A stretch of 64,000 nt of DNA from Asterochloris sp. CNOR1 (Eukaryota > Chlorophyta > Trebouxiophyceae > Trebouxiales > Trebouxiaceae), in NCBI GenBank assembly GCA_963969365.1, contig OZ017756.1:2108001-2172000 (forward strand). Direction: 5' to 3'. Position numbers and translations under genes: made by a program. The notes beneath the pieces are model-generated. The model saw only the letters and a list, made by a program, of their open reading frames with translations, was not told the origin of the DNA and did no database searches. This document shows, piece after piece, positions 1 to 61,600 of the stretch. The stretch's first letter is position 1. Each line of letters begins with the position of its first letter.

Positions 1-3000
1 CGTTTCAGCTCTCCGTAAAGCACGCGCACAGCGTGTGGGCAGCAGGCAAGCAAGACTGCACGCAGATTATGAGACACTACAGAGTAATAGAGCATAGTGT
101 CCAGACATGAGCTGCGTGTGCCCCCACCTGAGGACAGCCACAATGGCACGACCCAGCTCCCAGGACATCAGGTGCACCGCCGTGGAGCTGCAGGCAAAGC
201 TGCCTGCGCGCTGCAGCTCACGGCAGGCGGCCAGCAGCAGCATGAGCATGGCTGGCGAAGCTGCCGCTGGCAGGCTAAAGCGCATCTCCACTGCGCCACT
301 ACCCATGTCTGCTTCCTGCAGCAGAGGCAGCATGTGGGCGGTCAAGGGCTGCTGTGTATGACAGGTGAACTGTGAAGGGTGCATGGAAACGCAGCTGAGG
401 CCAGACGTGTCCCTCCTGCAGTTGCAGCCGCATGTGTGCAGTCAGAGCTGATGCACTGACAGATCTCTGGCAGGGTCTGGGGAAGCCACAGAGCAGCAGT
501 GTGCCGAAGGCTGTGGGTTGGGTGTTGACGATATAGGTGCTCCTGCAGCTGTGCGTTGGCCAACACAGGGGGTGGGAGCAGCTATTGTAAGTGTGGCTGG
601 GGTGTTGATGCAGCTGACACCAAAAAGCCAACAACCCATCATCTGTGGCTGAGATCTGGCGTGGCTCCACAAATGAAGCACTACAGGTGCGTAAAGCTGC
701 CATTCCTGCCTCACCTGCTGGACAACTGTCTCTGCCCATGTCTTGAGCACAGCAGTGGCTGAGAAGACAGGGTCCTTCCCCAGAGCAGCTGCCAGCTCCA
801 GCGACAGCCCTGCAGCGGCCCAGGTAGCCCACGTCTCGTAGCTGGCTGTGCTGACCTGCCTGCAAAGCAGCTGGGGCATGGCTGCAATGAGCATGAGCCT
901 GCTGCTTCTTCTGGAGAGCCGTGCACATGGCCATGCTTCACAGAAGTGGAAGTTGAGGTGCCCCATGCCTGGGAAGCCAGATACTATCAGTGCTGAAAGC
1001 ATGCAGATCCCAGTCTTCAGAGATGCAATGCTGCTCCTGGCAGACTGCACAGGCCGCTCCAGCACTCGCATGACAGCTTGGGCAGCATTGACTGACTGCC
1101 AGCACTGTGTGAAGTTTGCATACATCATCCTTGAACAAGCTGGTGCAAAACAAAGTGACGGGACACCTCTCCATGATCACCTGCACTTTGCCCGGAGTGC
1201 TGTGAGCTCCTTACTGTCGTGCTTTGCCCGGCGGCTGGATGGCCGGCCCAGCTGGGCCCCTGCAGCGCTGAAAATCTGCACAGCTGTGCTCTGCTGCGAC
1301 TGCCAAGCGTCCGGCGACGATAGCACCAGCTGTAGCGCGGGGCTGCTGCCCAGTATCTGGGCTACACTGCCTGCAGGCATGGTAAGGCTTGCTGAGCATA
1401 AGCACTGCAACAGCACCATGAGGCTAGATGTGTTGCCTGTTGACCCCAGACTGCATGGCAAACCCAGGCAACCAGCAGTGTTGTTTGCATTTCAACCTCA
1501 TGCACAGACTTGTGTTACCTGCAAATTACTTCAGGTGCACATGATGTTGGCTGCTTGTCAACCACAGCGCAGAGCAGTGCAATGCAGGCAGACTGAGCCC
1601 GTCTGCAGGTCCAGCAGCTCCCCTGATCCCAGCCTTGCACAGAAGCACATCTGGCTCAGCGCTCTGCACTGAGCCCTGCAAACACGACCAGCTGCCAAGC
1701 ATGTCAGATTCTGCAGCTGGAGCTGTAAGAACCCACTCAACAGCAGGGCCTGTTCAACAGCTGGGAGCCTCTCAGTCAGCAGGGCCTGCTAAACAGCTGA
1801 GGCACCACTAAACAGCAGGGCCTGCTCAGCAGCTGGGCAACTCACCAATCAGCAGAGCCTGCTCCACAGTGCCCGCCCCAGCCACATCGATGCCGGCCTC
1901 AGGCAGGCTCTCCAGCTGCTGCTGGAGGTGGGTCAGCACGGCATGAGCCATGGCTGAGGCATGCTCCAGAATGGAAGGCTCCAGAGCTGCTGCACGTTTG
2001 TGCATGGCACGATGAGTGCCTGGCTTGGAGGCAAGAGGGGGCATGTGCGCCTCTGCAGACGCTGAATGGTCCTGCAGAGGGGATGTTAGCACTACTTCAT
2101 AAACATAAAGGTTTTTGAACTGGTGTCCATCAGAAGAGAGCATCGAATACGCTTTGCCAAGCACTGGGACACTGCCATGTAGCGTTGATGCTACTGATAG
2201 CAAACGCTGTCATGTCAGTGTGGTACTTTTGAGCAGTCTTGCACAGGTGCGCAGCATCAGCCAAAGTCAAGGATTGTGTCCTGACGTGCTGACGTGCTGC
2301 CTGCCACTGGGCCCACAGGCTGTTGCAGCAGTGCGGTGCATTAACATGGATCAAGTCATGCTGACCTGCTGGCCTGCCAGGAGGGCAGCAGCCTGCAGGG
2401 CCTCCTGCAGTTGAGCGTCCACCCGGCCGTGCATGAGCTGTACCTCACTACGCCAGTCAGGGACCTCTGCCAGCTGCTGCCCTGTCGAGGCATCTGTAGA
2501 CTCAGCGCCCTGCACAGAGGCAAGCAGGCATGCTTCGCACAGACTGACTTGCAGCAGACAGCAAACTACGAGCAGCTGATGTTGGCTTCCCCTGAAGGCC
2601 TCACCATCCCTTGTGGCCGTGCTGCTTTGTATGTGTAGGAGCTGCTTCAGGCAGGGCTTCCCAGCATCACAGTTGCATGACCCGTCACTCGTTGCCAAAG
2701 CACCTCAGGTACAGTCACGCTCACCTCAGCTGCTGCACGGCGCCTTGTGCTGTAGCCCAGCTTCTGCCTCTTTCGGGCAGCTGGCCCCTCCAGCAGGGAT
2801 GGCTCTTCTGCATCGGCGCCCGGCCACTGCTGGGCCTGGAAGGCTCCAGGGGCGGCTGGCTCTGCCTTTGCCGCGTAGCTCAGTGCTGCTGTCAGGGGCT
2901 CAGCAAAGCCCTCTGCAATGCGCAAGAAGACGCCGGCCAGGATGCGCCTGGCTTGCTGCAGTGAGGAGTACATGTCAGCGTGTGAGAACATCTAGGTGTG

Positions 3001-9272: not shown

Positions 9273-12200
9273 TCAAGCAGCTGCTTTCTGCCCTCGCTTG
9301 CGCTTTGGCTTCTTGGTATTATTTTTGTCAGAAGTTGAACTGGCCAGCTTGGACAGAGGCTCTGTCTTGACGACAGTGTCTGCCGGAATGGGCCACTTTG
9401 CTTTGGGCTCTGCCTGCCTGAAGGGGCTCTGCAGCTGCACATCTGCCGGTCTGTTGTTGCTGTCCAGATTCTCATCTCTTTCAGCTGCTGCCTTATCTGT
9501 GGAACCTGCACAAAGGAGCACTTGGGGAACAGTCCACATCTCTGGGAAGAGCAAATTGCAGGAAGCTGGCTTTTGCAGAAGTCCGACAAGAAAACATCAC
9601 ACACCCAGCTTTACTATAGCTCGGGCGGTGGTGGCAGGCTCACCTGACTGGGTGTGCTGGCGCCTAGGCCTGATGCGGGGCACTGAAGACATTGCCAGGG
9701 CTTCAGCGAGGCCACTGTCACCAGCCTGCACCATGCAGTGTCAGCAGTAAAGCCTTTTTGTCACACTGTAACGTAGTGAAGGGCATTAGACTCAATGGCA
9801 GCAGGGCTCCGCCTGGCTGCTGGGGAAGCAGTCAAGCTCCTCATGCCTGTCACGCCGAGCCCTCACCGAGCTTGCCTGACCGCCTGGGCCTGGCATCCGC
9901 CCAGGGGTTGCCAGCAGTGCAGCCCTGGATCCAGACACCCGTTGGCTGCTCCCTGGCGCCTGCCTCAAGTCGCTGCCATTAGCCGGTCCCAGCGACCTGC
10001 GAGCCGGGCCGCCCCCAGGGGTCAGCTGGTCACTGCGGGCCACCGCCTTGTGGGGAGTCGCGGCTGCCTGTGCTGGCTGGCAAGGGCCGGCGCCTGCTCC
10101 TGCCAGGCTGCTGGAAGGTGCTGCATGGCTGGGGTGGAAGCGGGACTTGCGCTGCTGGGCTGCCAGCACCTTGGCAGCCATGGGCGAGTCTGGAGTGGAT
10201 CCTGCAGGTAACTGCCCTGCACAGGCACTTGCCAAAGTCACCTCAAGAGGCCACTGGAAGGCCAGTCTGACAAAGTGCTCCCTCTGCTGCAGGGTGCTGT
10301 CTGCTGCCTGAGTCCAGGTGCTGGGTGTGGGCCGGCCTTGCGAGGAACAGAGAGACACAGCGGCAGCCCCAGGCATGACTGAGCCCAACACGGGAGCCTG
10401 TGCTGTATACATGACCCAGGCATGAGCAGGCCCGACGGCGACCTGCCCCATCTGCCCCGCTGCTCTCTGGGCCTGCTCCCGCCGCCCGACCTCCTCTGCT
10501 GAGCTGCTGGCTGCCTCACCCCAGGAGGCCCGCATCACCGGAGCCCGAACTCACAGAGTCTGTTGCACAGGTCCTTACCTGGCCTGCTGCCCCCCTGTCG
10601 CCTGTCCGTCCTTGGCTGCGCACTCTGCTGAGCCGGCTGCCCCGACATTGAGGGCCCCTCAGAGCTCTGGGCAGCTGGTCCCTGCCCTGAGGGGCCTGCA
10701 CCCACGCCGCCCCCTCCTGGCGCACAGGGCTGCCCGGCAGCAGTTGCCGCCGCCCTCTGCTCGTCCTGGCGCAGGTCGTACATGATCTCGCGTGCCAGCT
10801 GCTTGTCTGCCACCAGGATGTCCTCAATCTGCAGGAGGGTGAGTGCAGTGCTGTCAGACACAGCAGGGTTGAGGTGGGTGCTGTGGCACGAGCACAGAGA
10901 CGCAGGTTGCTGCCACTCCTGGACCAGTGGCCCAGCCCTGCTCAGCCATTGGCCCACCCATCAGGGCCTAAACTCCTTGAGCAGCATGCACGTGGCTTTG
11001 GTATTTCCCAGCCAGCCATGCTTCTGGTTTGTGGCTACTGGCCTGCGTTTGGGGCTTGTTGTTATAACGCAACAGGCAGCCGGCTGCCAGCAGGTCCTTT
11101 TAACACTCTGACATTGTGCACACTTTGACCTTGGCGAGACCTGTCCATCCAGCGCCTGCTTTGGCTGCCCAGTGGACCCCAGGAGTCGCCCAAATGGCCC
11201 AATATGCGCTTGCCAGCAGCCCACTAAGCTGTCTTTGACTTCTGCATGCGTGCACTCCACGCTCACCTCATGCTTGTAGTCCTTGAGCAGCATGCGAATA
11301 GCTGCCAGCAGGTCCCTCAGCAGCCAGTGCTGCTGCCCCTCCAGCGCCCTCTTCAGCTCGATGAGCACCGGGACCACCCCCTCCACCAGGTGCTTCTTCA
11401 TCATTGCACTGACCTGCAGGCAGCGGAGGAGGGAGCTGACTGCTGCAGCTGCATGATGATAGCTGTCGGGGGCCAGACCGATCAGGGAAGCGGGGGGAAA
11501 GGGGGTGGAGGTGATATGTGTATGACCTGTTCTGCCAGGACAGGCAGGTGGGGGGAACCTCAAGGCTACCGCAGCACACTGACATGCTGGCGCTGACACA
11601 CCTCCATGGCTGAGTTTCTTGCAGGGTTTGCAATCGCTGCAGCTAATGGGGACTGTCTGCTGCACGGCTTCTTGAGGTGTGCAGGGAAGCATCAGGGAGA
11701 TGACGCCCCCATCTGTAATCATGCCGTGAAGGGCTCACCAAGCGGCCCTTGGCTGCGCTGACCACAGCTGCAGCATCTTCCTCGTCCCCAGCGTGCTTGG
11801 CGGCCGCCGCAACCTGCACGCGCACAGCGGAACACTGGTGAGCAGAGACACATGACATGCGCTCCTGCCCCACAAAGGAGGGACACTGCAGCTTGAGTGC
11901 AGTGCAGCAGGGCCAGACTGGACGACAGAAGGTGCTCGGCAGACCTTCATCGAGTGTTTTGACATAACTCCTCCCACGACACGTCAGGCAGCGCAGTACA
12001 TCAAGCAGCTGCTCCTCACAGAAGCCCAGCTGGAACTTACAGCAGGCCAGCCATCATGCAAAGGGGATAGGTTAACTCGACGTGCTCTCACCTCTGTTGC
12101 ACAACAGGACAGATAGCGCAGTGCATCGCTCGGCACGCCTTGCAGGCGCTCAGCTGGAGCTGGAAACAGGATGACAAGAGCTCACCTTGATCTCGCGGCA

Positions 12201-15200
12201 GGCCAGGCAGCGTAGTGCATCGCCCAGGACCTCCTCGCAGGCAGAAAGTGGCAGCGCCCCGTCTGCCACGCCTCCCAGCACCTCGCTGCACAGCTTAGCA
12301 GCCGTGGCAAACTTGTGCTCGGGAGCCATGCGGGACAGCAGCGTCCTGCACAGGCAGGCGAGGCCTTCAGTGCAGCACAGCAGGGCCTGGAAGACCGCCT
12401 TCAGCTCTGGGAGCACTGCAGCTGCATTGTCTATGGCTGCCACCGAGAGCATGAAACACAGCAGCAACAAGGTCGTCCTCTGGAGTAAGGGGAGGCAAGC
12501 GGAATGGCGCCAGCTCAGGGCAAAAACACTCAACACTGCATGCCAGCATGCACACCGCCTACTGTGCACAGCCCTGCCCCACCTGTAGATTGTATCCCGC
12601 TTGGCCCTCAGTTGCGGGCATGATCCCTGCAGCTGGTGCCCTCCCCCCAGCTGGCTGTGGGAGAAGGCGTCTCCCACATCAGCCATGGCAGCAGCACTGC
12701 CTCCCCCATGCAGACCCTCTCGGCAGTCGTTCAGAACAAAGAGGGCCTCCACAAAATGATTGTATGCCAGGAGGGGGGCCTGCACACAGCAGGCTGCAGA
12801 TGCTAGTGCTGCGAGCACCATGTCAGCTGATTAAGCAGGCCCCGGCTCTCTGTACAGCCTCACAGGCTGCAACTTAAGCAGGTCAGGAGAGTAAATCGCG
12901 CTGCACTTTCCCAAAAAATAGCATGGGACAAGCTTCTTGCAGACCACTGCCAGAACCAGGTGCACCGCAGACCTCCCTGCTGTGATGCCCTTGCATCGCT
13001 GAAGGCACCACTCCACTGGCTGCAGCCACTACTGTGTACATTGACAGCCAAAGGGGCTAGACAGAGGGCGCAATGGCAGAGCAAATACCCCAACGAGCAG
13101 CCCTTGAAGTGGTGCAGAGCCCACCTTGGAGGCCAGGGTGTCAGTCAGAAGGTACTCCGCCAGAGAGCAGACAGAGGAGGACTCATCAACCAGGGCAAGA
13201 AGGAAGTGGTGGAACAAAGGACCCCGCCACTTGACATAGTCCTGCAGGCGCAGCAGGGAGGCCCTCTGACCGGCGTACTCAGGCCTCAAATTTGCTGTGT
13301 GCCACTGGTGCAGCCTGAGGCACACATGTCTGCATTTCTGCATGCCTGCTGGACCAGGGCTCGGCACAGCTCCATGCCCCAAATGAGAGGTCTCTCAGAC
13401 GCTGAGCAGCCCCGAGCACTTGGGCTCAGGCAGTCAGACCTGCCCCTGAGTCTTGGCTCACCTTCTGGAGTAGGTTGGCCAGCAGCGCCAGGGCCTGCCG
13501 GCGCACTACCTCATTGGCATCCCCCAGACAGGCCGCCAGCCGCGGGACGTGCGTGTCCACCAGTGCAGTGTACTGCAACGAGATGGGGGCAACATGTGAG
13601 GCATGTCTCTTTAGAGCGTGTGCAGGCCAGACTGCTCAGTCCGCTGGGTGTGTGCTGAATCCACGCAGTGCCAGGTGGTGCTGAATGCAGTAGCTCAGGA
13701 ACGGATTGTCAGACTCACTTGGACACACATGTCTGCCAGCGCAACAATGATGTTGTTGCGCACTGCTGGAGCATGTGCCCTGCCCAACTCTTGCACCAAA
13801 AGGGGCATGCACTTCTTGGCCAGCCCCTCATCTGTCAGGCAGATTTTGCCAAGTGCGGCCCAAGCATGCGCCTGCACAGCAGCAAAGCGGGCGGCTGCAT
13901 CATTATGCAGAGCCGCATTGGCATCAGCATGCAACTGGGCTAGGGCACCGAGAAGGAGCCTCTCTTGAGAATTGCAGATGCCGCACCTTTAGCCAGGACC
14001 TGCATTTGCAGCTGTGTGGGTGATGCAGCTTGCAGAGTGGCCACCTGGAGCTTGTCCTGACCTGTATCCTGATACATGCATTACCGGCTGCCCAATAGCG
14101 GCTTATATGTAAGTGGTCACCTGCACAGCTGTTGGGACTGCTGTCCCATCCTGGAAGCCGCCACCCTCAGTATCTGCAACTGCCAGCCGCGCAGCCGTGA
14201 GGGCTTGCACCAGCACAATCAGCCTGCCAGAAGGCTGGGCAGCACCCAGCAGCGCCACCTGCAGCCACAGCAGCATGCCGCATCACATGGCACACTGTGG
14301 CCACCACGATGCAGGTCCCTACAACTTGCAGCGGGCACTACAAGGTGTCTACTGAGCCTTACGTCAGATGGAAAACGCCCTTGCCAGTGACCCCTCACAA
14401 CAGAAATACAGCCAGCCTGAGCAGGCGCTGCTCTCAGCCCCGTCTTGCACCCTCTGCAGAGCAGCGGGTGGCAATGTCCCTAAAAACGCGAACAAACTGA
14501 TGGATGCCAAGCAGTGCCTACAGCATGAGGTTCAGCACCTTATGTCATCCGACTGCATGCAGCGCCTGCACGGCGTGCAGTGGTTTGCTGTAAATTTCAA
14601 TGCACCGACCTCTCCCACGCTCTACAGGGCAGTGGCTGGCTGGATGCCGCAGTACACCCCCCTTCCTGGAGCAGTGGCCACCCAGGAACCCACACACCCA
14701 CCTCTCCTACGCTCTGCAGAGCAGTGGCTGCCCTCAGGTTGGCATCACCCCCCTGCTGGCCAGCACTGCCCTTCACTGCTGCTTTGCCCTCCACATAGGC
14801 GCCCAGCAGCTCCTCTGCTGCAGACAGCACTTGCTGGCACCCGGCGCCCGCTGCACCCTCCCCAGCTGCGCTGCTGCCAGACAGCTGGCACAGGGCTGCA
14901 ATGTGGGCGGCTGCAGCCGCAGGGGCCAGCAAGAATGTCTTCACGGCCTGCAGTGGTCACGCAGCGCAGGTGGGTGTCTCAGCAGGGGCACAACAGACAT
15001 CAAAAGGGGCTGCTGCAAGCCAGCAGAACCATGCAGACATGGTCACAACCTGTGAGGTCAAGTGGTGGATCAACGCCTTCAGAGCTTGCTTCTGTGTTTG
15101 TGCAGTATATTGTGTTGACAGAGCCCAAAAGCTGTGGGAGGATGCCGACACACCTTGAGCATCCCCTTGGCCAGCTGCCTGGCCTCCGCTGCTGGGCACC

Positions 15201-24230: not shown

Positions 24231-25568
24231 ATGCGACCCCTGCAGCAGCTGCAGTCATCAATCCAGGCTCCACCACAATGCCTTCAGCGGCATTCAACAG
24301 CACGTTGCCAGGCTTTTAAACACGATGGTCTGGGCAGGCCTGCACTCTGTCATAGGAGGGAGCTGCTGGCATGGGGCCTAGCAGCTGCAGGACTGGCACC
24401 AGCATGGTAAGTGCTGGCCATCAGGCAGTCATCTGGGCAAGCAAATGCTGAGGAGTGTCATCGTCGATCAGGGCAGCATCTGCCAGAAGTGCACCAAACA
24501 CAGTGCGTGGGGACCGGACCTCGCCTGGACTGGAAACCCCAGTAGATGAGAGTGCTCCCAAGTATGCAAAGCTTGCAGGCTGTGTTCCGCTCACTGCTGT
24601 AGCATTGCTAGACATACTGCTTTTCCTACAAGTCTACTGGTCGGCATGTTGCTGCCACTCTGCAGATTCAGCAAGACTGCTTCAGGAGTGAAGGTGCAGG
24701 AGCTTGGCCTTGGGAAGGGGAAGGAGGCTCGTGCAGACAGCACAGTTGAAGTGGACTTTGTGCTAAGGCGTCCCAATGGCTACTTCATCTATAGCACAGT
24801 GCAGGGAGTGAGCTTCCAGCCTAAGGATGTGCCAATTGGACCGCTTGATCTCAACTTGGTAAGTGCCAGCACAATTGTGCTGCTTGTTGAGACAGGTTGA
24901 TGCAGGTGTTTGAAGGGTCCCTGGCCAGCTTGAACCAATCTCATAGGCTGTGCTGTTGAGCACTGCATGTCATTGTGCAACGACAGTTTTGTGTTGCAGA
25001 GTGATGTGTGCCAGCTTTCAGCCTCAAGATGTGCGCACAGGATCTTTGGATGTGAGCTGAGTGGCAGGGTCTGGACTGCAAGCCAGCCTCCAATGTTGGG
25101 CATAGCACCTCATGCTGGGCAGCCTCTTCCTTGTGGGAGGGCGCTGGGCATCCGCTGCCAGGGAGCATACACAGCTTTCTCAGCCGGATGCAGTGAGCCT
25201 CATGTGGGACGTCCAGACTTGTGGCGCTGCAGTCCTGCACCACAAGCCAGCAGGCCCTCTCAAGTGGCAGATTACAAGGGTGCATGGCATTGGCGGCTGA
25301 GCTTTGTGCAGCACCCTGCTATGCTTGGACTGTCACCATCCCTTCATGGCTGCAGGGAGATGGTAGCACCATCCGAGGCCTGTCAGAGGCGGTGGCTGGC
25401 ATGAGGGAGGGCGGCAAGCGCAGGTGCCTCATTCCCCCCTCAGTTGGCTATGCACATGGGCGCTCAGAGCTAGCCCCTCAGATGCCAACCTTTGCCACCA
25501 AGCGCCAGCTCCTCAACCACTCTAATGAACCCCTGCTGTTCGAGATCCAGCTCCTGAAAGTAAGATGA
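24231..25568 (+). CDS. Thylakoid-lumen FKBP-type peptidyl-prolyl isomerase-like protein
   Basis: The ATG at 24231 opens a bipartite presequence: a basic Ser/Gln-rich transit region, then CHRRELLAWGLAAAGLAPA, a twin-arginine (Tat) lumen signal ending in an A-x-A-like site. The FKBP domain follows: TASGVKVQELGLGKG and VEVDFVLRRPNGYFIYS (exon ending 24858), then exon 25356-25568 with TIRGLSEAVAGMREGGKRRC and LIPPSVGYAHG, ending FEIQLLKVR and stop. Compared with FKBP12, the catalytic FD pair (F36/D37) is replaced in YFIYS and W59 by Leu, as in several plant lumenal FKBPs. Low isomerase activity and a chaperone or assembly role are therefore likely (inference). The borders of the exon(s) between 24472 and 24666 are not settled. 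The downstream neighbour is convergent. Confidence 0.87.
24811..25057. repeat. Decayed copy of the FKBP exon end in the following intron
   Basis: The exon end at 24811-24856 (agcttccagcctaaggatgt and onward) recurs with substitutions at 25012-25057 (agctttcagcctcaagatgt and onward), about 202 bp downstream in the intron. Confidence 0.7.
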
Positions 25569-37202: not shown

Positions 37203-37477
37203 CGGTGCAGAGGGCAGGCAGAGGGCAGCAAGGGTGAGGGTCGCGGCGGGCTCCAGGTGTAGACAGGATTGTTGCGTCGCCGCCTCAGCCAGCCCCGAAG
37301 CCTAGCCCACGGGGCAGGGATGCCATTGGTGTCAGCTACACTGGCATACCTTTGCCTGCTCCCTTGTATTGTAGGTTGTCGTCCCTGTGGGACACCTTCA
37401 GACGGGCAGCCATGGCCAATGACCCCGACAAGGCTGCATCTTGCCAGGCTGCTGGACAAAGGCACATTCCCACTCAT

Positions 37478-37945
37478 TAGTTCTGCAGCATGCAGCCTCA
37501 TTTGCTGATGCCCCTGGCACAGCTGCTTGGGCAGGGCACTGCCCACCTGGACAGCTGCAACAGGCAGCCTTTCAAGCCCAGTGCCCTGTTTGCGACCCCA
37601 CATTTGGGCAGGGACACCCACCTTTCCTGCTGCAGCATGCAGTCTCACCCAGCTTGCTCCCCTTTTCAAAGCTGGACAGGAACACCAGTTCCCCACCACC
37701 TCGCCAGACCGCCAGACTGGGGGGTCTCGCCCACCTCATCGGCGCAGTGTACAGCCATACCACATCGTTTCACTCCCCCGATTCCACTGATGGCTATGTA
37801 GAGGCATCACTCCTCATTCCAGCAGCATGCAGCCTCACAAGCTCACTGGCCCTTTTGCATTCCCACACCCAGGCAGGGCACACGCCCACCTTCATTGCTG
37901 CAGCATGCAGCCTCATCAGCCCAGTCCCCTCCTTCCACTCCCGCA
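37478..37945. repeat. Degenerate ~76-80 bp minisatellite carrying donor-like sites
   Basis: About five units share gcagcatgcagcctca, then agctcactggccc-like and caggcagggcac-like blocks and cccacctt. On the minus strand each unit has a potential donor of the form AAG or CAG followed by gtgggc/gtgggt. The rightmost unit forms the end of exon 37890-38172 (coding LMRLHAAAMK). Confidence 0.7.
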
Positions 37946-43700: not shown

Positions 43701-46700
43701 GCGCAGCGAGCTGGAAGGTATTGACCAGAAGGCAGCCCTGCTGGCAGAGGAGGCCAAGCGCCATGGGGACCACGCCCGCCAGCAGCAGGCAGGTCTGGCA
43801 GCCATCGCTGGGCAGGCTGAGGAGGCCAAGGTGAGCTGGGACAGAGCTCAGCTTGAAGTGCCCGCTTCTCGATTCAAAGGGGGTGAATAGCATCAGGGCT
43901 GGTGTGTGGCATGCACACAGGCTATGCCGGAGACATAGCTTGCGAACCAGCTTGTCAAGCTGCTTTCTGCATCCTTTCTGTCTACCTGGCATTGGCAGCC
44001 AATCAAGGGTGGCCTGGCTCTTTCGATATGTGCTGCCTACCAGAGCGGCCATGTACCTGACCAGTATCAGCCTGCCTCATGCAATGCTGACGGCCATTGC
44101 AGCCCAGAGGGCTGCAGGAGAGCAGGGTACCCTGCCCATACGCTCACCTGGCACCTCCAAGTGCTGCAGGCCATTGCCGCCCAGAAGCGCCGCGAGGCTG
44201 AGCAGGCTGAGGAGATGGCCAACAATCGGGCGGCGGCACTGGCAGCTGGGCAGCAGGCTGTGCAGCAGCACCAGAACCAGTCCCAGACCAAGATGGAGGA
44301 GGCACGGGGCCATGCCCTGAACGCCCAGCAGGCTAGGTCAGCATCAGGGGTGTTGACCTTGCCAGCCAGCAGCACAGAGTTTTCCTAGCACCTCATAGGT
44401 TGCTGCCTTGGGGCCTGCACTCGTGCCTGGTTACATGACACAGCTGGCATCATAGCGTGGGTTGTGTCCCAGTGCCAACGTCTCGCTGTGTTGCAAGCAT
44501 GTGCACCGCTGTCTCGTCTCAAACCAGACATCACCTGCAGCAAGCCGCCTGCCTTCATCCAGAGAACCACACTTGGTGGTGGCACACAACAATGCCGATT
44601 TGTCAGGCATAGTCATGACTGGCACTATGCCTGACAAATCGGCATTGTTGTGTGCTACCACCAAGTCTGCATGACTCAACCCTACATGATGCGCTGCCAG
44701 GAGAGCCTCCCAGCCTTGAGTGTCGCCTGGTTTTGGCAACCTGTGCACCTCCCTTCAGCCCTGCTCTCTGCACTGCAGTGAGATCCCTGCCAGCACTGAG
44801 GAGTGCTTGGCTATGGCCACCTCTGCTGCTGGCCTTGTCAAGCCCTGCTGTCCGCTCTGCAGGGAAGACCTGGCCAGCATTGAGCGCCGCCTGGCACTGG
44901 CCGAGGATGAGGCACGCCAGGCCAAGGCGTCCACCCTGGAGTACGCAGACGTGGCCAAGATCGAGCGCGAGAGGGCATTGGCTGCACGCGCGGAGGCTGA
45001 GAAGGCTGGCAAGAACCTGCAGTCTGCCAGGTTAGTGCCCACTTCACTTTTGAGGGCATACTGATGGGCAGTTGGGGAGTAGGGTGTCTGAAGGGGCACC
45101 TGCAGGTAAGATGGCTGGCAACAACCTTGAGTCTGTGCCAGATCTGTAAGGATCTGTGCTCGTCACAGTGCTGGATTGAGCAGGTGATGGGCAACTAAGA
45201 AGTGGAGAAGGGAAAGTGGGTTGCATTGGAGAGGGGCTTGAGAGGGTGTCCGCAGCTGTGTAGAGGCTGAAGATGCTACTGTGGAAGGGTCGCCTGCAAC
45301 AGTGCTGGATATATATATACAGGAACATGTGCCTTTGCAATGGTGTTGCCTCAAAGGAGCAGGCACACAAGGCCAGCAAGCTGTGCTGCTCCTGGTATTA
45401 TGGGTGAGATGCTTCTGCTGACAATGTGCCTTGCATGAGGTGGGCCCTGCTCCCTTTGGAAACGTCATTCACATTGTGCTCCTGCGGGCATGCCCTTGCT
45501 CAGATTGCGCCCCTGAGCATGTTCTGCTACTCCTCGCTTACGTGCTGTGTGGTGCTGATCAGTCTCTACTTGTGTGCAGGAACCTGGCTCAGCAGAAGAT
45601 GCAGGAGCTGGAGGCCTCCAGGGCTACCATTGCAGAGCAGGAGGCAGCCATGAAGCCCCTGAGGTAGAAACATACTGCAGTCCGGCATGATGCTTGGTGG
45701 CACCGTCTCCTGGACAGATGGCAGGGATGACTCGCAGGACCCGAGTACCTGGGGTATGACCATGCTCCGCCAGAAGTGGCAGGCATCACTGGACAGCATA
45801 CACAGACACACATCCTGCAGCGTCTTCAAGAGTGCATGATGGGTGCCACTCTGCTCAGCAACTGGCCGCAGCGCCAGCCTGGGTGTTTTGCTGAATGCTG
45901 AGGGGCTGGGCCTGCTGCTGCTGCTGCTGCAGATGTGTGCATGTCCATGACACACTTGACTTGCTTGCAGTGGGCAAAAGCTGGCTGGCTCCAACGTCAG
46001 TGGCCATGCCTGCTGCTGCTGCAGAAGCGTTCATGACACCCTTGACTTGCGTTGATGGGAGAAGGCTCGTGAAGCGCTCAGGGGCTTCGCCGCCAGCTGC
46101 TGCTGCTGCTGCAAGATGCTCGTCACATGCCTGCGCACCTGCAGGGCTCAGATTGCTGAGCTGGAGGAGGCCTGCAGCAGGCAGTACGCCACCGCTGAGG
46201 AGAGCGCACGCGAGTGGGCGGAGGTGACTAACAATGCCAACATCCACAAGGGTGAGCCAGCTCTGTTGGAGCGTTGCTGCTGTGCAGCGAGGGCAGGGGA
46301 GGGGGGGGGGGGGGGGAGGGGGGGGGCACATGGTGGTCGTCTCTGCATGCTGCAGGTGGATCATGTATGGAGAGCTGCTTGCCCTGCTGCTGACGACTTG
46401 TACTGCACAGCAATTGTGCACTGCCTGTCGCAGCCGAGAATCCCACTCACTGCACCAAGCTCACCAGCTCCTATGCTGTGAGGGCAGGCCCTTGCAGAAG
46501 CACCTGCTGCCATGCCAGATTACTGCACAGTGCAGTGTAATTGTAGCCTCACCGTGTGCAGTTGGAGGAGCCCTGTGCACTGTACACGCCTGAACTGCCC
46601 CCCCATCAGCTGCGCTGCCCCTGGCTCTCGACTGCGCAACTTGCTCCTGCAGGCAAGTGGCACGAGTACTGGGAGGAGGCCAAGGCCCACGGTGACGAGG

Positions 46701-49202: not shown

Positions 49203-52200
49203 ATGGCGTCCATGAGCGCGGCTCAGTCTGCCAAGCAGACAGCGCGCCAGATGCTCACCATGGCGCAGGACAAGGCGCGCATCGCTGCTGCCAAAACCAT
49301 GAAGGGCGAGACGCACGTGAGCAACCCTGCAGTTGGCACAGCCTGCTATATGCATATGGATGCTACGTCCTTCCCTCCTGCACTCTTGATTGAGTCTGCT
49401 GCCTGATGCAATGCTTGCTTGTTCCAGATCAGAGCGGACTACAGGCAACGTCTCCCGCTGCTGCGCACCATTCCTCCTCAACTTCCTGCAGGAACTGGAC
49501 ATTGCAATCGTGAAGGCCACCTCTTCATCATTCCATGTGGTTCCCAAGGAGAAGCACGTCCGAAGTAAGTGGCCGGACGCTGGCCAAGTCCTCTGTGGCC
49601 CAACTCTGTGTACCGCAACAGGCTGTGCTTGGACTGCCATGCCTCACAGAGGAGCCAATGCTTCAGAGCTAAAAAGCAGCATCTGTCAAATAGGAGCATT
49701 GGCCAGCCGAGCTCTAGCAGCTGCATCGTGCCCTGTGTTGGCAACTCCCTGTTGCCCTGCACCTGCCTGAGTGCTCAGCATGCTAGCAGTGCTTGCTGCC
49801 AGAAATACAAAGCCATTTCATGCCTGCACTGCAGCGCTCAAGGGCGCCGTTCACCCAGCCAGGCCCCGGCGGGAGGTCCAGTATGTGATCAGCGAGCTGG
49901 TGCACAGGCTGCACCACGCCAGCGATTGGCTGGTGAGTCTGTGCCCAGGGGTCCTGCTTGGCTTTGGGCAGTAGGCTATGCATGCCATCAAAAACTGCCA
50001 GCAGGCAGTAGTTCACCTTGCAGCGCCTGGCTGATGAGGTCTGCCTTGCAGCCTGGCTGCTATCTGTGGCTTGCTTGGCCTTGGCACCAGTCCACAACCC
50101 CCTTTGCCTGGGCCTAGCAGCAGGCTGTCATGTCGTGTTGCTCCACAGGTGGCGGTGCAGGTCAGCAGGGAGCGCTGCATGCACGCCAGCTGGACCGAAG
50201 CCCTATCTCAACTGGGCCAGCAAGCTTGTAGGGGCAAGTCTGCGTACCCTCTGGCTCGCACCTGACCTGTTTGTGCCGCCTGCAGACTGCCTTGAAGTCC
50301 CTGATGACCATGCACCGCTTGATGCGTGAGAGCGACATTTCCTTCCTAGAGGAGGTGAGCCGCGCTCCTTGCTCTCACAATTGCATGCTATCTGGGCTCC
50401 TGTCAGCTATATTGAGTGAGACACCAGGGCAAGGCAGGCTGTGTCTGCTTCGGGCAGCGCGCCTGCCCCTGTTGGGCTGCTCTGGTGCAGCTTTGAGCCT
50501 GGCGTTCAGGCGCACTGTGCAGGTGGTGCCCCTGCGTGAATCAGGGGACCCTGTTTTGCTCCATGCCATCGAGGCCAGCTGGTCGCACACAGCATAGGCC
50601 CTGGTGGTGCTGCTCTGAGGCACATCGGCTCAGCCAGCCAGGCACTGCTCACTGATGTGCTGACAGCTCCTGCAGCTGCTCAGGTACAGTCAGGCAGGCT
50701 GACAGATGTGTTGCTGGCTCCTGCAGCTGCTTCAGCCTGCCAGGCACTGCTGACTGACATGCCAAATGCTCCTGCAGCTGCTCAAGTACAGCGAAAGCGT
50801 GACCCAGGGCAAGGGGCACGTCCTGAACATGGACAACTTCATCGACACCACCAACATTGAGGGGCGTTTTGAGTTCAGTGAATGGGTGAGGGCTGCTGCA
50901 AAATTCGTGTCTTGCTGCTGTTCAGTTTGTGTTAGGTGTGTTGCATGACTGAGAGCAGTCTTTGCATTGCCATGGTTGCTGAGCAAAGAGGCAAGCAGTG
51001 TGCTGATGTGGTGTACTGTGCTGCTCACCAGCAAGCTCAGGGGCACGGGGAGCCCTGCAGCAGGTGGTGTGTGCTTGTGCCGTCTATCACGTAAATTTTG
51101 GCATCACTTTACTCAAACCGCTTGCCAAATGCTTACTCAGGGGCAGGCCTCACATCTGGCAGCGAACTGTGCTGAGCTGCAGCCAAGGAAGCTGTGACCT
51201 TCTGCTAAGCTTGAGCTGAGTCCTCAGGACACAGTATGCTTCTGGGCTGGCTTGTCCTGTTTCTTGAGCTATGACAGAGCAGCACCAGGCCCTTGCTTCC
51301 CACTTGCTGCTAGGGAGTGCATCGTCGCCCCAGTAAGCACAGCAACCGGACCTGCTGTTGCCCTGACAGCCACCCTGCAACTTGGAAATGTTGGAAGTGA
51401 GAGGATTTCAAGGCACACTTTGAGCAGCTCCCCTTAACTCAAATGCACCCCCCTTGCACGTGCAGGGCTTCGAGGAAGAAGTTGGACAAGCTCACGCTCA
51501 CTGCCCTTCAACTGCAGGTGCGGGGCTATGGGAAGTACCTGGACGAGCAGCTGGAAGTCTACCAGAAGGTCAGCTTCTACCAGGAGCAGGAGCGTCCAGG
51601 GGATGCCTCAAAGCTGCGCAGCATGCCTGCGGCACAGCTGCTGTCACAGCTGCCCCACCTGCAACGTCTGTTGCAGAGGCTGCTGGACTGCAAGCCAGCG
51701 GGGGCAGCCTCGCATGACATAGTGGTGCAGGTGAGATGCCAAAGATCTTGTTTTGACTGAGTCATGTTGATCTTCAGGGGGAACTGAGAACAGCGCAAGA
51801 CATGGTACAGGTGTGAGTTGAACACAAGGCCATGTGTCTACCTTAATGAGCAGGACCCCGCTGTGCACAGGCATGGGGTGCATCGCAGGTTTGAGCAGTG
51901 CCTGCATCCCGGAGCTGCTCTGTTATGCCATAACTTGGGAGCTCCAGGCTGAAGCTGTGCTCTGCAAACTCCCTGCTGCCGTGCAAAGCTTGGGTTACTA
52001 TTGACAAGCCTGGCTTGGCGGGGCTGCGAGGCCAACATGCTTAATGGTGTCACAGTAAGGCTGATTCTGTGGCGCTGCAGATGGCTGAACAAGATGTCTG
52101 AAGCCTACACAGATCCTTGCATACCTACATTCATTGGCCCCATATGCTGGGCTGTGCTGTGCCTAGGCGTCCAGTGTGTGGTACTGCGAGAGAGCCTGCT

Positions 52201-55200
52201 GAATTCCCACAATGGAACGTGCTGAGGCAGATGACTGTTCTTGCAGTGGATCTGGCTCCTTGCCTTGTAAGTAAGCTTGAGCAGCAGCATGCCTTGACGG
52301 CCTCACACACTCATTGATAATGCGGGCTGCTGTGCCACCCTGATTCTGTGGCACTGGAGGTGGCTAAGCAAGCAGTTGATGTCACACTAGAGCCTGCTGA
52401 GGCAAACAGCCATCTCTGCAACACTCATTCCATGTCTTGCAGGAGAGCTTGCTGACAGTGCTGAAGGAGTCGTTCAAAGTGTACAAGGCCATCAGCGAGG
52501 GGCTGATCAACCTGGCTGATCACTTTTTTGAGATGGAGTATCTGGAGGCACACAAGGGGCTGGACATCTACAAGGAGAGCATTGCAGCCAATGAGCGCCT
52601 TCAGGTGGGCGCTGCTGTTTGTGACTCGTTTTGTGCTCTGATCCATGCTTTGCCGTGGCAGTTCTGAGTGGCAGACGTAGCATGTGATGCATGGCAGCTG
52701 GCTGGGATCAACAAGGGCCTGAGGTGGCTGCTAATGAAATGCCAAGCAGCTCTGTCATCTCCTCTTGCGGGGCATGAGGTTGCAGCCAATGGCAGGCTGC
52801 AGGTGGCTCTAGCTGCTTGGATAGGCATTGCATTACTTTGGTCTTTGGGCTGACGAAACCCCTGCAACCCAATATTGTTAAGGCAGGCTGCAAGTTTGTG
52901 CCATGTTGCGGCCTTTGGTTCCACCACCTTGAGCATGCCCTGCTGTGCATGAGCACCTTTCTGCCAGATGCACAGCCTCCCTGTGCATCTGCTGCAGCAA
53001 TACTACACCCAGATTGAGCAGATCGATGAGCTCAAGCGCAGCATCACCTTCCCCAAGCTGGAGAGCCCCCCAGCAGATTTCCTGCATCAGATGGAGGCTT
53101 ACGTCAAGGAAGCCCCTCGGCCCATGGACGAGGCCATGATGAGTGGGGGAGCCCATGCCGGCAAGAAGGTCAGGCTCCTCCAGAAGCTTCAGTGTGTTGT
53201 GTGGGAGTCCTCTGAAAGTTCTGATGGCCTCTGCTGGGTGAGCTCATGCTGATTGTGTCGCACCTTTGCAGGGCAGTTGCATATTGGAGATGGTAATGCG
53301 TCACAGGCCTGTGTGGGTTGTACGGGCACCTGCAACCATGGTGGTTGGTGCGGCCACGAATGAAGGGCAGAGTCAGGTGCCTTCCTGCTGCCAGTGCCCC
53401 TTTGCTCACATGGGGACCTGCTTGCGCTGCAGAGGAGCTTGCCCTGCGGCGGGGCATCAAGCAGCCGCAGCACTCAAATGGCTGCCCCCTGATGCTCACT
53501 TGGTGCCCGGCTGCTCTGCAGAGGAGCCCGCCCCTGAGGCGGGGCAGCAAGGTTGCACCCCGCCCTGCAGCCAAGGAGGCCCCGCAGAAGGACCCAGCGT
53601 TGGCTGTGGCTTTCGAGAAGGGAGTTGAGGACCCCAGCCAGCCGGCGCAGGAGGCTTCGCCGGACCTGCTGGACTTTGATGGGCTTGGGGTCAGTGAGGG
53701 CGCCCCAGCGGCAGGCGGGCCGCAGGTGGGTATCCTATCCTGGGGTCATCTGACTGCTGTGCTGGACTTGGGTGGACAGGGAACGCGCCTGCGGCAGGAG
53801 GGCAGCAAGTGCCCCTCTGCTCAAGTGGCAGCCCCGTACAAGCCAGAAAACTTTGCTAAGGATCTGGGGGCCCGGCTTGGCAGAGAGCTTGCTGTGAGCT
53901 TTTACAGTGTTCTCCACTGGCTGCAAACACCCTGTGCTACATTGCTACCTGTTCGTCGACCAGAGTCACAAGGCAAAGTGCAGCCCAACTGCGAGGCGCA
54001 TTGGAGTGTATGCTGCAGTAGACAAAGCTCACATTTGGATTGCCAATGCAGGCTCCAGTGAACAACGGTGCTGCAAAGGCTGGGGGCCCCATGAGCTACA
54101 CTGACCTGCTGGCCGATGCTCCAGCTACCAACTTCCAGCCGGCGGCGCCAGCCAGCAATGACCCCTTTGCCAGCAGCTTCCAGCCCCAGCCTGGCTTTGG
54201 GGGGCAACAGGAGCAGCAGCAGCAGCAGCAGCAGGGAGCTGCAGGGGCTAGGCCCCAGGCTGGCTCACCCGCCCCTCAGGGGAACAGCTTTGGTGGACAA
54301 CGTCCGGCAGGTGAGAGGCCCTCGTGGTGAATGGGTCGATTTATGGGTTGACAGCTTTCCTGACGACGCCTGGCAGGTGAGGGATTGTGGGCTGGTGCTT
54401 GGATGACGAGTCTGCCAGGGTATAATCAATCAGGCTTGCTCAGTGAAAGGCTCGGTGCTGTTCGAAGCAGTGTCTTCTCTCACAGGGCAGCAGCTTTGGG
54501 GGCATCAAGGCCCAGCAGGTGAGGGCAGCTGTGACAGGCTCTGCTAAAGGCGTCCCTGCTCATCCACATCTGCAGCAGGAGCACTGCCGTCTCCACAAGA
54601 AGGACCTGCCTTGCTGTCATCTGGTCATGCCCAGGTCCCTGCTCTGCTTCGTCTTGCCGCTCAGCTGCGAGCCAGGTTCAAATGCTTTCCATGGGATAAA
54701 TTTCCTGCCAGCCGGCTATGACTGATTTCCTTACACTATCCTCAAGCTGGTGTCACATGCGCACATACAGGCTGCAGTGACGTCATGCCCTGCTGTAAGA
54801 GCCGGTGCGTATGGCCTAGGCTGCAGCGGAGAGATCTCTGCCGACTTTTCAACAATCAGCCATAGCCTGCCCTCATCGAGTGTGCCTCAGCTGCAGGCAG
54901 CAACCCGTTTGGGACTCAGTCATTTGGGGGCGGCAGCGCTGCGACAGGCGCTGGCAGCGCAATGGGGCAGGGAGCCAACCCCTTCGGCGCTCCCCAGACC
55001 TTTGGGGGCGGCCAGCAGCAGGGGCAGGGCAGCTCGCCTTTCACCAGCACAACAGCTGCGCCTGCGCCATCTGCCATGGCGGGGCAGGGCGCGGCATATT
55101 CCCAACAGTCCTCGCAGCAGCAGCAGCAGGCATCACAGGGCGCTGCTACCCAGCAGAAGCCCACGGCTCAGGCTGCATCATTCAAGAAAGAGGGGGCGGT

Positions 55201-55507: not shown

Positions 55508-55607
55508 CTGAGGAATGGCCTGAGATCTCTCAGCGCAGCACAGAACCAACATGGCCACTCTCTGAACATGCTGAACATGATGACAGTGTGACTATATTGC
55601 AACAGAG

Positions 55608-58600: not shown

Positions 58601-61600
58601 AGCTTGGGCCTGCAAAGCTGAAGCTGCTGGATGGGCTGTGCCACGAATCTGGTCTGCAAGTGCTTTCATAAGGACATGAAGAAACTTAGCTTCACCTTGC
58701 AGGTGGTGCCCACGGCACCCCCTCAGCACAGCCCGCTCTGCCGTCTGCACAGAGCCCAGATGCTGCTGCCGTCGTTGTGACTGGCAGCAACAGAGTTGCT
58801 GGGTCGCCCAACATGGACAGGGCTGCTGCCGGCCGCTCCCCGGGGCATGGCAAGGAGGCAGGAGGTGCGGCTGCTGTCGGAGCCAGCGCTGCAGAAGCAG
58901 CAGCAGAGGGCAGCTCGCCTGCTGTAGAAGCAGGCTTGACCCACAGCCCTTTGCACACCACACCCAAGGCTGAGCTGCCCAGCGCCAGCCATGGTGCCAC
59001 TGCTGACAACTCAGCAGCAGCAGCCAAGCTGCTAGCAGAGGACAGCAACCAGGCAGCTGAACCAACGGACGTCGAGCCTTCTGACGGGATGCACTCCAAG
59101 GCTGTCGGAGAGCTGCCAGCAAAGCATGATAGCTGGGCAGCAGCATCAGGGGATGCAGGGCTGTCTGAGGGGCTGCACCCTCACGCCGTCAAGGGGCTGC
59201 CAGCTGAGCATGGCAGCCAAGCGGGAGCGCCAGGGGCAGACAACGATGGTCAAAGCTCTGATGGGACTCGGTCCCTGCCCTCAGGAGAGCTGCAGGACAT
59301 CGACGTTGCAGGCGCCTCTGCTGCTGAGATGCTGTTGGACGATGAGCTGGCAGGCGCTTTAGGTGAGTACATTGGTCAGGTGTGGGTGTGCAGGCTGCGC
59401 CTGCTGCAGTTGACAACAGAAGTCCAGCTGGCATGGTTGTTGGCTTGTGTGTCATGATGGCAATCCATGGGGCCAGAGGTGGATCAGTGTTGGGCATGCC
59501 CTTACCTGCACAGCATAGGGTGGGGTCCCAGCTGGGATCTCATACGATTTGTACTTTGCCCGTAAAGGGGGGCCAATGGTATAAAACGGCAAGACAGCGT
59601 CAAGGCCAGGCTACTCAGCCTGTCAAACCTCTTTGTGTACAACCACTTGTGCTTTTGGGGGGTAGTGAGGCATCCTTCTGGCACTGCAGGTGCAGGCTTC
59701 CTGGCTTACCAATGAGGTGTTGTCAGCCCAGACGCCAAGCTTCTCTGGCTCTGAGCCTACCTCCCTACTGTGCTGCCAGTGTAGACTCCAGGGCTCTGCT
59801 GTCCTAACATGCTGACTTTCCTTGCACTGAGCTCATTCTGCAAGCCGCAAAGCAGTGAGGCCCTCTTGCAGGTGCAGGATTCCAGGCCGACCCATGACCT
59901 GCTGCCACCCTAAACCTGTCCGCCCAGGCGCTGGCTTGTCCTGCCTGAGCTGGGTTCTATACACCGTGTACTGTCACTGGCCCCTGCAGGTGCTGGTCAA
60001 AAGCCCACCAGGGCCACGTTGTCCCCCTAGACGCCCACTTGATTTCCAATGAACACATGCCCTCTAACACTACAGTCGCCAACCCCTGTCACCCAGACTT
60101 TGCGCTGAGCTCATTCCCAAGCAGTGACCATTGATGCCCTTCTGAAGGTGCAGGCTTCAGGCCGGCACAGGCCCTGCTGTCCGCCAAGTCACTGAACTCC
60201 GCCGCACTGAGTTCACCTCCGCGCACCAGGGATGATCTCTTAGCGTCCTTCTGTGGGTGGATGGGGGCTGAGCCTGACTCCACGGCACTGGGCCCCCGCG
60301 GCTCCCCGCCTCGCGCGCTGCTGTCGCATGTGGAAGGCATGGCAGGTGTGTTCTGGCAACCAAGGACTGGGCCTGAGCTTTCCTCAAGTTGGTGGGGCCT
60401 GAACCCCACCCCTCAGCGCTGGACACCCCCGGGATGTTGACGCAGGGCTCTGCTTATTCCAATCGGCAACTGGGTCTGGCTCATCACATCTCTGCTTGGA
60501 TCTTGAGGCTGACCCCTTCATGCTGGGCAACAGTGCAGAGTACAGCTGGCTGGCCTGAAAGGCATGCGCAGGATGATTGTGCTATACGGTGCCATGTTCC
60601 ATGCTGGGTGTATGCCGCACCTCATATTGGCTGCGCCATCAAGTCATGGCTGCAGTGTCATGCAACATGCCTGGTGGTCAGTACTTTATGCACGCCTGAT
60701 CCTGCATGGCACATGCGTGCTGCAGCCTGGTCGCTCAGGGCATGCGAGCTGTGCCGGCAGGCATAGGCCTGGAGCGCTGCATCTGGCAGCTGGTTAGCAC
60801 AGTAGTTGCTTGGGGGTCGCAAACGGGCTGCTGTGCGCCAGCCTTGACACCGGGCATGCAGCTGAGGCATTTGACCTCGTGAACCTTGACCAGCCAGTGT
60901 CAACGCCTGTTGGCTCACAACTGTGCAGCTGGCCACCATGTCCCTGTGCCAGGATGTCTCCCTCCTGCTGCCTGCTATCCTTAGAATTGGGGAGATGCTA
61001 TGCGATCTGGAGATGAGGCAACACAGTCCTGCGTCTCAGAATGTCATAGCTTCTGACGCCGGGAAGCTCACCACTGTTCCAGACAGGCAGCTCACCAGCA
61101 TTCTGGAGGGTTCAGAGGATCCCTTTGCAGGCTGGGATGCCTGGTGGCAGGACGTGGATCTGTGCCTTTATACCAATCACCAAGGTTGCCCTGTACCCCT
61201 GTACTGCCTGGGCCATTTGCAGCAGTCAGCCCTCCATGCACACGCATCCCTGGGGAGGTGTCTTTGCGCACCACCAGCCTCTGCCCACCTTGCGTGGGCT
61301 GCCCTAATGGGTTCCATGCCTCAATGTACCAGCATGCCTACAGCATGTGTATGGCTCCTGAAGGCTCCCCTGCACCATGTGCAGCTGAGGAGGGCATCAG
61401 TCCTCACATGAGCGCAGAGACACTCAGCACGCCCAGCCCCCCGCACAGCAGCTCCAGCGGGGGGAGCCCAGATGCTGCGCAGGCTGAGGCGGCCTACTCA
61501 CGCCAGAAGCTCAAGGGCAAGGCAGTCATGCGCCTAGGTGAGGCCAGATTGCAGTCTGTGCCTTGCGGAGATGGATCTCATTGGGGCACGTCAAGGCCAG

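What the first reader, a model, noticed from the sequence alone, without database searches (positions are those of the whole stretch)
1739..60345. Genome-wide-looking habit: exon/intron junctions tandemly repeated inside introns
In COG1, CAP-D3, FKBP, the SDE3-like helicase, the coiled-coil gene, AP180 and the last gene, a splice site with 20-60 nt of adjoining exon is duplicated one to six times, and the extra copies lie decayed in the neighbouring intron. Both donor-side cases (1739, 11978, 14604, 15497, 24811, 37478) and acceptor-side cases (32760, 44091, 50641, 53403, 59643) occur. Ordinary microsatellite slippage would not be expected to centre on splice junctions so often. Tandem duplication containing an AG/GT junction is a known model for intron gain; here it may instead lengthen introns or shift splice sites. 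Whether the enrichment is real needs a null model.
Basis: partly seen in the sequence, partly recalled or inferred. Interest (0 to 1): 0.85.

Follow-up and report, generated by a model that had tools for sequence, protein, structure and literature searches.

The report
Decayed tandem duplications lengthen algal introns
In this green alga about one in nine exon-intron borders has an old, decayed copy of itself inside the neighbouring intron, which is what ordinary local duplications leave behind when mainly those that splicing can hide survive; the borders themselves do not clearly look like special targets.

Summary
A self-trained gene finder on 294 kb (window plus 23 ten-kb stretches from 18 large contigs) gave 513 introns. 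Against fair nulls the junctions are not clear hot spots: junction and intron-interior probes are repeated about equally often (ratio 1.15, 95% 0.89-1.44), and repeat pairs touch junctions only slightly more than with shuffled exon positions (132 vs 117 +- 9). What is not random is polarity: the extra copy lies on the intron side in 96 pairs (44 expected), in exon in 10 (26 expected). Best explanation: short tandem duplications survive when the outer splice site stays in use; the extra copy becomes intron and decays, while the conserved exon keeps the pair recognisable. Introns grow: 0 of 124 junctions in 80-150 bp introns, 28% of 78 in introns of 600 bp or more. Tandem-duplication intron gain and introners are not supported. 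Unexplained: 1 of 170 pairs is at least 90% identical, so the wave is old; intergenic DNA has few repeats. Junction targeting of about 1.3-2-fold is not excluded.

The parts
1731..1869 (-).
   Evidence: score 269, 80% identity, shift 36; TRF row 1733-1869
11981..12255 (-). CAP-D3-like gene: donor of exon 12186-12345 copied in intron 11814-12185
   Evidence: score 151, 70% identity, shift 95
14603..14771 (-). CAP-D3-like gene: donor of exon 14702-14947 copied in intron 14259-14701
   Evidence: score 176, 77% identity, shift 92
15498..15743 (-). CAP-D3-like gene: donor at 15706/15705 copied in intron 15298-15705; the acceptor of the same intron also has a copy (15301-15412)
   Evidence: scores 170 and 143
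24788..25062 (+). FKBP gene: end of exon 24700-24858 copied at 24990-25062 in intron 24859-25355
   Evidence: score 131, 64% identity, shift 202
37555..37930 (-). SDE3-like gene: donor of exon 37890-38174 with three decayed copies in intron 37396-37889 (one copy, at shift 415, lies below 37555)
   Evidence: scores 261, 149 and 122 at shifts 265, 415 and 153
32766..33015 (-). SDE3-like gene: acceptor and first ~54 nt of exon 32358-32819 copied in intron 32820-33326
   Evidence: score 257, 73% identity, shift 150
44030..44208 (+). Coiled-coil gene: acceptor of exon 44170-44336 copied in intron 43831-44169
   Evidence: score 147, 82% identity, shift 77
50604..50791 (+). AP180 (ANTH) gene: acceptor of exon 50778-50885 in an array of about 51 bp period reaching into intron 50355-50777
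   Evidence: score 230, 79% identity, shift 102; TRF 3.1 copies of a 51-bp unit, 50628-50784
53349..53551 (+). AP180 gene: acceptor of exon 53522-53725 copied in intron 53169-53521
   Evidence: score 197, 73% identity, shift 90
59803..60233 (+). Last gene: acceptor of exon 60154-60345 copied in intron 59363-60153; a second weaker copy lies at shift 457
   Evidence: score 243, 70% identity, shift 276
34163..34353 (-).
   Evidence: score 223, shift 80
44706..44941 (+).
   Evidence: score 253, shift 84
63158..63394 (+).
   Evidence: score 230, shift 108

Best explanation
Short tandem duplications (shifts mostly about 40-300 bp) arose in and around the introns of this alga, mostly during a past episode. 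One that crosses a splice junction leaves two splice sites. It survives when the spliceosome goes on using the outer one (upstream donor or downstream acceptor), because the extra exon fragment and splice site then simply become intron and the protein is unchanged. Freed of selection, the extra copy decays; the exon copy is held by selection, so junction-spanning pairs stay recognisable longer than intron-only pairs and look over-represented. The net result is intron lengthening. Shown here: the copies, their polarity, their non-coding decay, and the lack of a clear junction excess under symmetric controls. Inferred: that the outer site is the one spliced (from coding potential, not RNA), and tandem duplication as the DNA event.
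For: Polarity: copy on the intron side of the true junction 96 vs 44.4 +- 6.3 expected with shuffled exon positions; junction with a copy in exon 10 vs 25.7 +- 5.3; copy beyond the exon, in the next intron, 2 vs 14.4; binomial 1e-10 and 9e-10 against the null splits. Junction contact as a whole is close to the null: 132 vs 116.9 +- 9.1. With symmetric +-400 bp targets, hit rates at score >=105 are donor 8.6% of 408, acceptor 7.0% of 414, intron interior 6.8% of 6238; ratio 1.15, bootstrap 0.89-1.44, against neutral simulations giving 0.58-1.95 in five settings of age and exon constraint. With ages fitted to intron-only pairs, four settings of the neutral model predict 101, 140, 299 and 317 junction-plus-exon pairs; observed 129. 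Copies decay as non-coding DNA: mismatches flat over codon positions (.293/.288/.304), 148 of 166 gaps in the exon part not a multiple of three, shift modulo 3 even. Copies look local: a 16-kb window query lists only two short matches elsewhere (that search skips common words). Share of junctions with a copy rises with intron length: 0 of 124 in 80-150 bp introns to 28.2% of 78 in >=600 bp introns.
Against: A first simulation with uniform ages predicted a junction/intron pair ratio of 0.59-0.76 against 1.50 observed (102/68), and one of four fitted-age settings leaves a 1.28-fold excess; for junction pairs alone the four predict 65, 84, 120 and 131 against 102. The fitted settings predict more exon-only pairs than seen (36-185 vs 27). 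In the window by itself, junction pairs with a copy in exon are not depleted (7 vs 7.0; others 3 vs 18.8). Exonic mismatches show no third-position excess, although the exon should collect synonymous changes (simulations). The exon part of the copies is short and clustered: 27 of 60 at 30-45 nt vs 12.7 expected, 3 vs 15 above 75 nt (expectation for 57 matched cases). Intergenic DNA holds far fewer repeats (9 vs 25 pairs; 2.6% vs 9.6% of random probes), which a generic mutation process does not predict.
Confidence: 0.7

Rival explanations
1. A duplication mechanism aimed at splice junctions (for example breaks or template switches linked to splicing or paused transcription) that copies about 40 nt of exon plus adjoining intron.
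For: Junction/intron pair ratio 1.50 vs 0.59-0.76 in the uniform-age simulation; junction contact 132 vs 116.9 +- 9.1; exon part at 30-45 nt in 27 of 60 vs 12.7 expected; repeats are intron-enriched over intergenic.
Against: Junction and interior probes are hit about equally often; interior CTGCAG sites are repeated more often than true acceptors (15.6-15.9% vs 10.4%); three of four fitted-age neutral settings reach or exceed the observed number of junction-plus-exon pairs.
Confidence: 0.12
2. Intron gain by tandem duplication of AGGT-containing exon segments: each intron is itself one half of a duplication.
For: The model exists (PMC3443670, PMC4974935; passages read) and the copies carry splice sites. 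Out of register there is a slight 5'/3' similarity excess (19 vs 10.8 +- 3.2 at >=80, 7 vs 3.1 at >=90).
Against: In register there is none of note between 5' and 3' junctions of the same intron: 0 of 331 at >=90 vs 0.3 expected, 3 vs 1.1 at >=80, 20 vs 14.2 +- 3.1 at >=60. Copies lie at a shift of at most half the intron in 90 of 103 hits and are absent from 80-150 bp introns.
Confidence: 0.03
3. The copies are functional: alternative splice sites or regulated decoys kept by selection.
For: Decoy AG kept in 31 of 43 and GT in 20 of 44 spanning cases; 11 of 44 decoy acceptors score above the true site.
Against: Identity at decoy donor GT is no higher than around it; decoy donors are weaker (median -6.9 nats, stronger in 2 of 48); copies lose frame freely. 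The AG excess may come from the commonness of CTGCAG.
Confidence: 0.06
4. Gene-finder artefact: wrong junctions, or unrecognised coding repeats taken as introns.
For: Models rest on a self-trained HMM without RNA; some exons look wrong (for example 9884-10510 and 15706-16200); random exon probes also recur in 10.0% of 221 cases.
Against: Pfam matches run across predicted junctions (ANTH model positions 1-275 of 276, FKBP_C 3-94 of 94, AAA_12 19-193 of 195). Copy rate is similar for strongly coding exons (94 of 702, 42 of 334, 9 of 66). Copies are frame-broken.
Confidence: 0.06
5. Introners or other dispersed elements inserted near junctions.
For: PMC9860276 (passages read) says introners were found primarily in lineages that evolve rapidly, such as green algae.
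Against: The repeats match their own locus and not foreign introns; a 16-kb own-genome query lists two short matches.
Confidence: 0.02

Closest known systems
Internal tandem repeats at human exon-intron boundaries (PMC2812944; passages read)
   Same: Tandem repeats crossing an exon-intron boundary, partly spliced out, with exon and intron elongation.
   Different: There: recent minisatellites, on average 30-bp units repeated 4 times, in segmental duplications, often polymorphic. Here: mostly one extra copy (77 of 97), median shift about 112 bp, old and decayed, at about a tenth of junctions.
Tandem duplication across an intron-exon boundary in potato RdRp (PMC4974935; passages read)
   Same: The duplicated unit holds the 3' part of an intron and the 5' part of the next exon, with its acceptor signals.
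   Different: There a new intron formed with a donor activated from a cryptic site; here the extra copy seems to be absorbed into the existing intron.
Tandem genomic duplication model of intron gain (Rogers 1989, as cited in PMC3443670 and PMC4974935; PMC2891723 for Drosophila; passages read)
   Same: Tandem duplication that carries splice signals and is hidden from the protein by splicing.
   Different: That model makes a new intron from an exonic AGGT unit; the 5'/3' junction homology it calls for is not seen here.
Introners (PMC9860276; passages read)
   Same: Repeated sequence in introns; green algae are among affected lineages.
   Different: Introners are dispersed families of similar introns; these copies look local and specific to each junction.

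Membership tests
Tandem-duplication intron gain | 5' and 3' junctions of one intron homologous in register | tested here: not met
   0 of 331 at >=90 vs 0.3 null; 3 vs 1.1 at >=80; introns under 120 bp not tested
Tandem-duplication intron gain | intron absent from relatives at that position | not testable with these tools
   no related genome is held
Introners | similar intron sequences at many unrelated loci | tested here: not met
   16 kb of the window: two matches elsewhere, of about 45 bp; only this stretch and 301 bp were searched against the whole genome, with common words skipped
Introners | target-site duplications or terminal inverted repeats | not tested
   not searched, since no dispersed family was found
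Tandem repeats at exon-intron boundaries that lengthen introns | direct repeats crossing the boundary | tested here: met
   87 of 950 junctions at score >=120 and spanning
Tandem repeats at exon-intron boundaries that lengthen introns | extra copy lies in the intron and is spliced out | tested here: inconclusive
   position met (96 intron-side vs 10 in exon); splicing inferred from coding potential only
Tandem repeats at exon-intron boundaries that lengthen introns | longer introns carry more copies | tested here: met
   0 of 124 junctions in 80-150 bp introns to 28.2% of 78 in >=600 bp introns; short introns also offer less room for a copy
Tandem repeats at exon-intron boundaries that lengthen introns | copy number varies between relatives or individuals | not testable with these tools
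   no strains or relatives held
Functional tandem alternative splice sites | decoy sites conserved above their surroundings | tested here: inconclusive
   donor GT not (20 of 44); acceptor AG 31 of 43, above neighbours but confounded by CTGCAG abundance
Functional tandem alternative splice sites | transcripts using the decoy | not testable with these tools
   no RNA data

The most novel reading that the evidence does not exclude
A past burst of duplication confined to transcribed, intron-bearing DNA and coupled to splicing or splice-site-linked breaks, copying about 30-45 nt of exon with the adjoining splice site. It would explain the intron bias, the near-absence of young copies, the narrow exon extent and a residual junction excess of up to about two-fold.
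Probability: 0.12. Interest if true: 0.8.

Novelty: new member of a known kind. Interest (0 to 1): 0.4.

Why it matters
Where intron length comes from is a standing question. Here about a tenth of junctions carry a readable fossil of one route: a duplication across a splice site, hidden from the protein by continued use of the outer site. It also shows how a pattern can look targeted when selection on one copy and short introns do the work. If the past-burst and intron-only signs hold, the alga offers an episode of intron growth that could be dated and studied.

Tried and rejected
Junction hot spot: the first profile showed about 14% at donors and 13% at acceptors vs 4-8% inside introns, but its targets were own introns only, so an interior copy could not match its exonic partner; with symmetric targets the peak was gone. 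The first event simulation suggested a two-fold excess; fitting ages to intron-only pairs removed it in three of four settings.

Copies born diverged: suggested by flat codon positions and by the true-junction copy having the fewest private changes in 20 arrays of three or more members, but calibration put the intron part between the one-sided and two-sided models; not pursued. Repeat-induced C-to-T mutation: transitions are only about 42% of mismatches. CTGCAG-seeded duplication: CTGCAG ranks 3 of 60 common 6-mers, not unique. Long unit extents from permissive extension drifted and were replaced by stricter scoring (where two rows of zero shift are trivial self-matches). Paralogue comparison through the LHC family was not possible because no loci were cut.

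Corrected on re-check: the line 'ANY junction-touching 159 vs 146.9' wrongly counted the class 'exon + intron (no junction)'; the right figures are 132 vs 116.9 +- 9.1, and my confidence in the best explanation went from 0.72 to 0.70 for that reason. The number of intron or junction pairs at 80% identity or more is 13 of 170, not the 17 that stands in my notebook.

Rows left out: 495 of 513 introns had both flanking exons; 440 (>=120 bp) went into (>=80 bp, 950 junctions) into, 408 donors and 414 acceptors into; one search used 60 of 87 spanning hits with a clean exon edge (57 of them matched to simulations), and its simulation modelled donors only.
Full report
Setting. The window lies in an unnamed 56.4-Mb genome of 21 contigs, at C11:2108001-2172000. 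GC is 57-61% and light-harvesting proteins are numerous (PF00504, 31 matches), so it is most likely a green alga. Size, GC and a 110-kb small contig (C20, 110,056 bp) fit Asterochloris glomerata as described in PMC6652019 (56 Mb, GC 56-62% in 98% of the genome, mitochondrion printed as 11,0932 bp; passages read). The genus is an inference. No annotation, RNA or related genome is available.

Gene models. I wrote an HMM gene finder and trained it on the window plus 23 ten-kb stretches (294 kb). It settled on 513 introns with donor CAG|GTGAGC (7% GC donors) and acceptor YTGCAG|, and gave 87 gene models. Proteins of 8 of the 12 window models were scanned against Pfam, three of them trimmed: ANTH over model positions 1-275 of 276, FKBP_C 3-94 of 94, AAA_12, AAA_11 and MOV-10 beta-barrel in three adjoining models that are probably one SDE3-like gene, Cnd1 in the CAP-D3-like gene, and a GNAT domain. 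Some exons are imperfect.

Are the copies real? Each junction with its flanks (up to 100 nt of exon, 80 nt of intron) was aligned to its own intron and, as a null, to foreign introns. 103 of 950 junctions scored >=120 against 5 in the null and 4.0 +- 2.3 over 12 nulls; 87 of the 103 span the junction. Alignments run through exon and intron alike. The copies look local: 16 kb of the window searched against the whole genome lists two matches of about 45 bp (the search skips common words).

Are junctions special? A first profile seemed to say so: about 14% of donor-centred and 13% of acceptor-centred 60-mers recur in the own intron, 4-8% of interior 60-mers, about 1% of controls. That comparison was unfair, because an interior copy could not find its exonic partner. 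With +-400 bp targets on both sides, the rates at >=105 are 8.6% (donor, 408), 7.0% (acceptor, 414) and 6.8% (interior, 6238 probes); ratio 1.15, bootstrap 0.89-1.44. At >=95, interior CTGCAG sites are at 15.6-15.9%, random intron sites at 9.6% and random exon sites at 10.0%, against 12.1% and 10.4% for true donors and acceptors; interior AGGTRAG sites are too few to judge (2 of 14 sense, 0 of 11 antisense). So there is no clear junction hot spot in this measure.

Pair level. 279 local repeat pairs (shift 18-700 bp, score >=120; 26 of 7278 foreign-null windows reach 120) were classified and compared with rotations of the annotation (300, 600). Junction in at least one copy: 132 vs 116.9 +- 9.1 (6.2% of rotations reach it). 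But the arrangement is far from random: copy on the intron side of the true junction 96 vs 44.4; junction with a copy in exon 10 vs 25.7; copy beyond the exon in the next intron 2 vs 14.4; intron-intron 68 vs 74.9; exon-exon 39 vs 19.9; intergenic 9 vs 25.2. This is what selection would leave if the outer splice site continues in use. The intron-side excess holds in the window (25 vs 12.2) and in the other stretches (71 vs 32.2); the shortage of exon copies holds in the others (3 vs 18.8) but not in the window (7 vs 7.0).

How much junction excess can remain? Neutral duplication with conserved exons and uniform ages predicts 0.59-0.76 junction pairs per intron pair; observed 1.50. But the pairs are old. 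With ages fitted to the intron-intron identities, the same model predicts 101, 140, 299 or 317 junction-plus-exon pairs for four parameter sets (junction pairs alone 65, 84, 120, 131), observed 129 (102 alone). An excess of up to about 1.3-2-fold can be neither shown nor excluded.

Decay. In the exon part, mismatches are .293.288 and .304 at codon positions 1-3; 148 gaps are not multiples of three and 18 are; shift modulo 3 is even. The copies evolve as non-coding DNA. Decoy GT is kept in 20 of 44 and AG in 31 of 43; decoy donors are stronger than the true donor in 2 of 48 cases, decoy acceptors in 11 of 44; the latter are the best candidates for alternative splicing.

Consequence. The share of junctions with a copy rises from 0 of 124 (introns 80-150 bp) through 3.7, 7.1, 18.1 and 25.0% to 28.2% of 78 (>=600 bp). 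A duplication adds its own length, so this fits intron lengthening, though short introns also offer less room for a copy. It does not fit intron gain: the 5' and 3' junctions of an intron are not clearly homologous in register (0 of 331 at >=90, 3 vs 1.1 at >=80); out of register there is a slight excess (19 vs 10.8 at >=80).

What stays odd. (1) Age: 1 of 170 intron-intron and junction-intron pairs is >=90% identical and 13 are >=80%, whereas the uniform-age simulations leave over half of detected pairs >=80%. With constant birth, density cannot rise with age, so the wave has ended, or early divergence is unusually fast. (2) Place: random intergenic probes are repeated in 2.6% of 270 cases, intron probes in 9.6% of 677. 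(3) Exon extent: 27 of 60 clean cases hold 30-45 nt of exon (12.7 expected), 3 hold more than 75 nt (15 expected); long exon copies may have been called exons by the gene finder, or may be selected against. (4) The exonic partner shows no third-position excess. Points 1-3 are the reason to keep a splicing-linked burst as the bold reading.

Literature. Closest precedents are human internal tandem repeats at exon-intron boundaries (PMC2812944), the potato RdRp duplication across an intron-exon boundary (PMC4974935), Drosophila novel introns (PMC2891723) and the review PMC3443670; for all of these I read passages only. Of the papers listed by nine full-text searches (the first listings only, one of them empty), none by its title or abstract start describes this pattern in an alga; the library holds only openly licensed papers, so this is no proof of absence from print.

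Noticed in passing
whole sample (window and L002-L024): Intergenic DNA carries several-fold fewer decayed local repeats than introns (2.6% vs 9.6% of random probes; 9 vs 25 pairs expected).
   Followed up: partly
whole sample: Only 1 of 170 intron or junction repeat pairs is at least 90% identical, while intergenic (3 of 9) and coding (1 of 39) pairs include some: an ended wave or fast early divergence.
   Followed up: partly
window:41405-41540: Tandem repeat of 15/30 bp inside a coding exon of the coiled-coil gene, encoding a TTGAGS-type repeat, 94% identical between shifted stretches.
   Followed up: no
L016:4444-4846 and L016:7030-7179: Near-identical (91-95%) tandem repeats in predicted intergenic DNA, among the most alike in the sample.
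   Followed up: no
whole sample: Acceptor consensus CTGCAG is very strong, 7% of predicted donors are GC, and K/E/Q codons end in G about 86-89% of the time.
   Followed up: no
window:25752-39360: The three adjoining minus-strand models (AAA_12, AAA_11, MOV-10 beta-barrel) are probably one SDE3/MOV10-like helicase gene split by the gene finder.
   Followed up: no
whole sample: Exon-exon repeat pairs are twice as common as with shuffled positions (39 vs 20); protein repeats or missed introns were not told apart.
   Followed up: no
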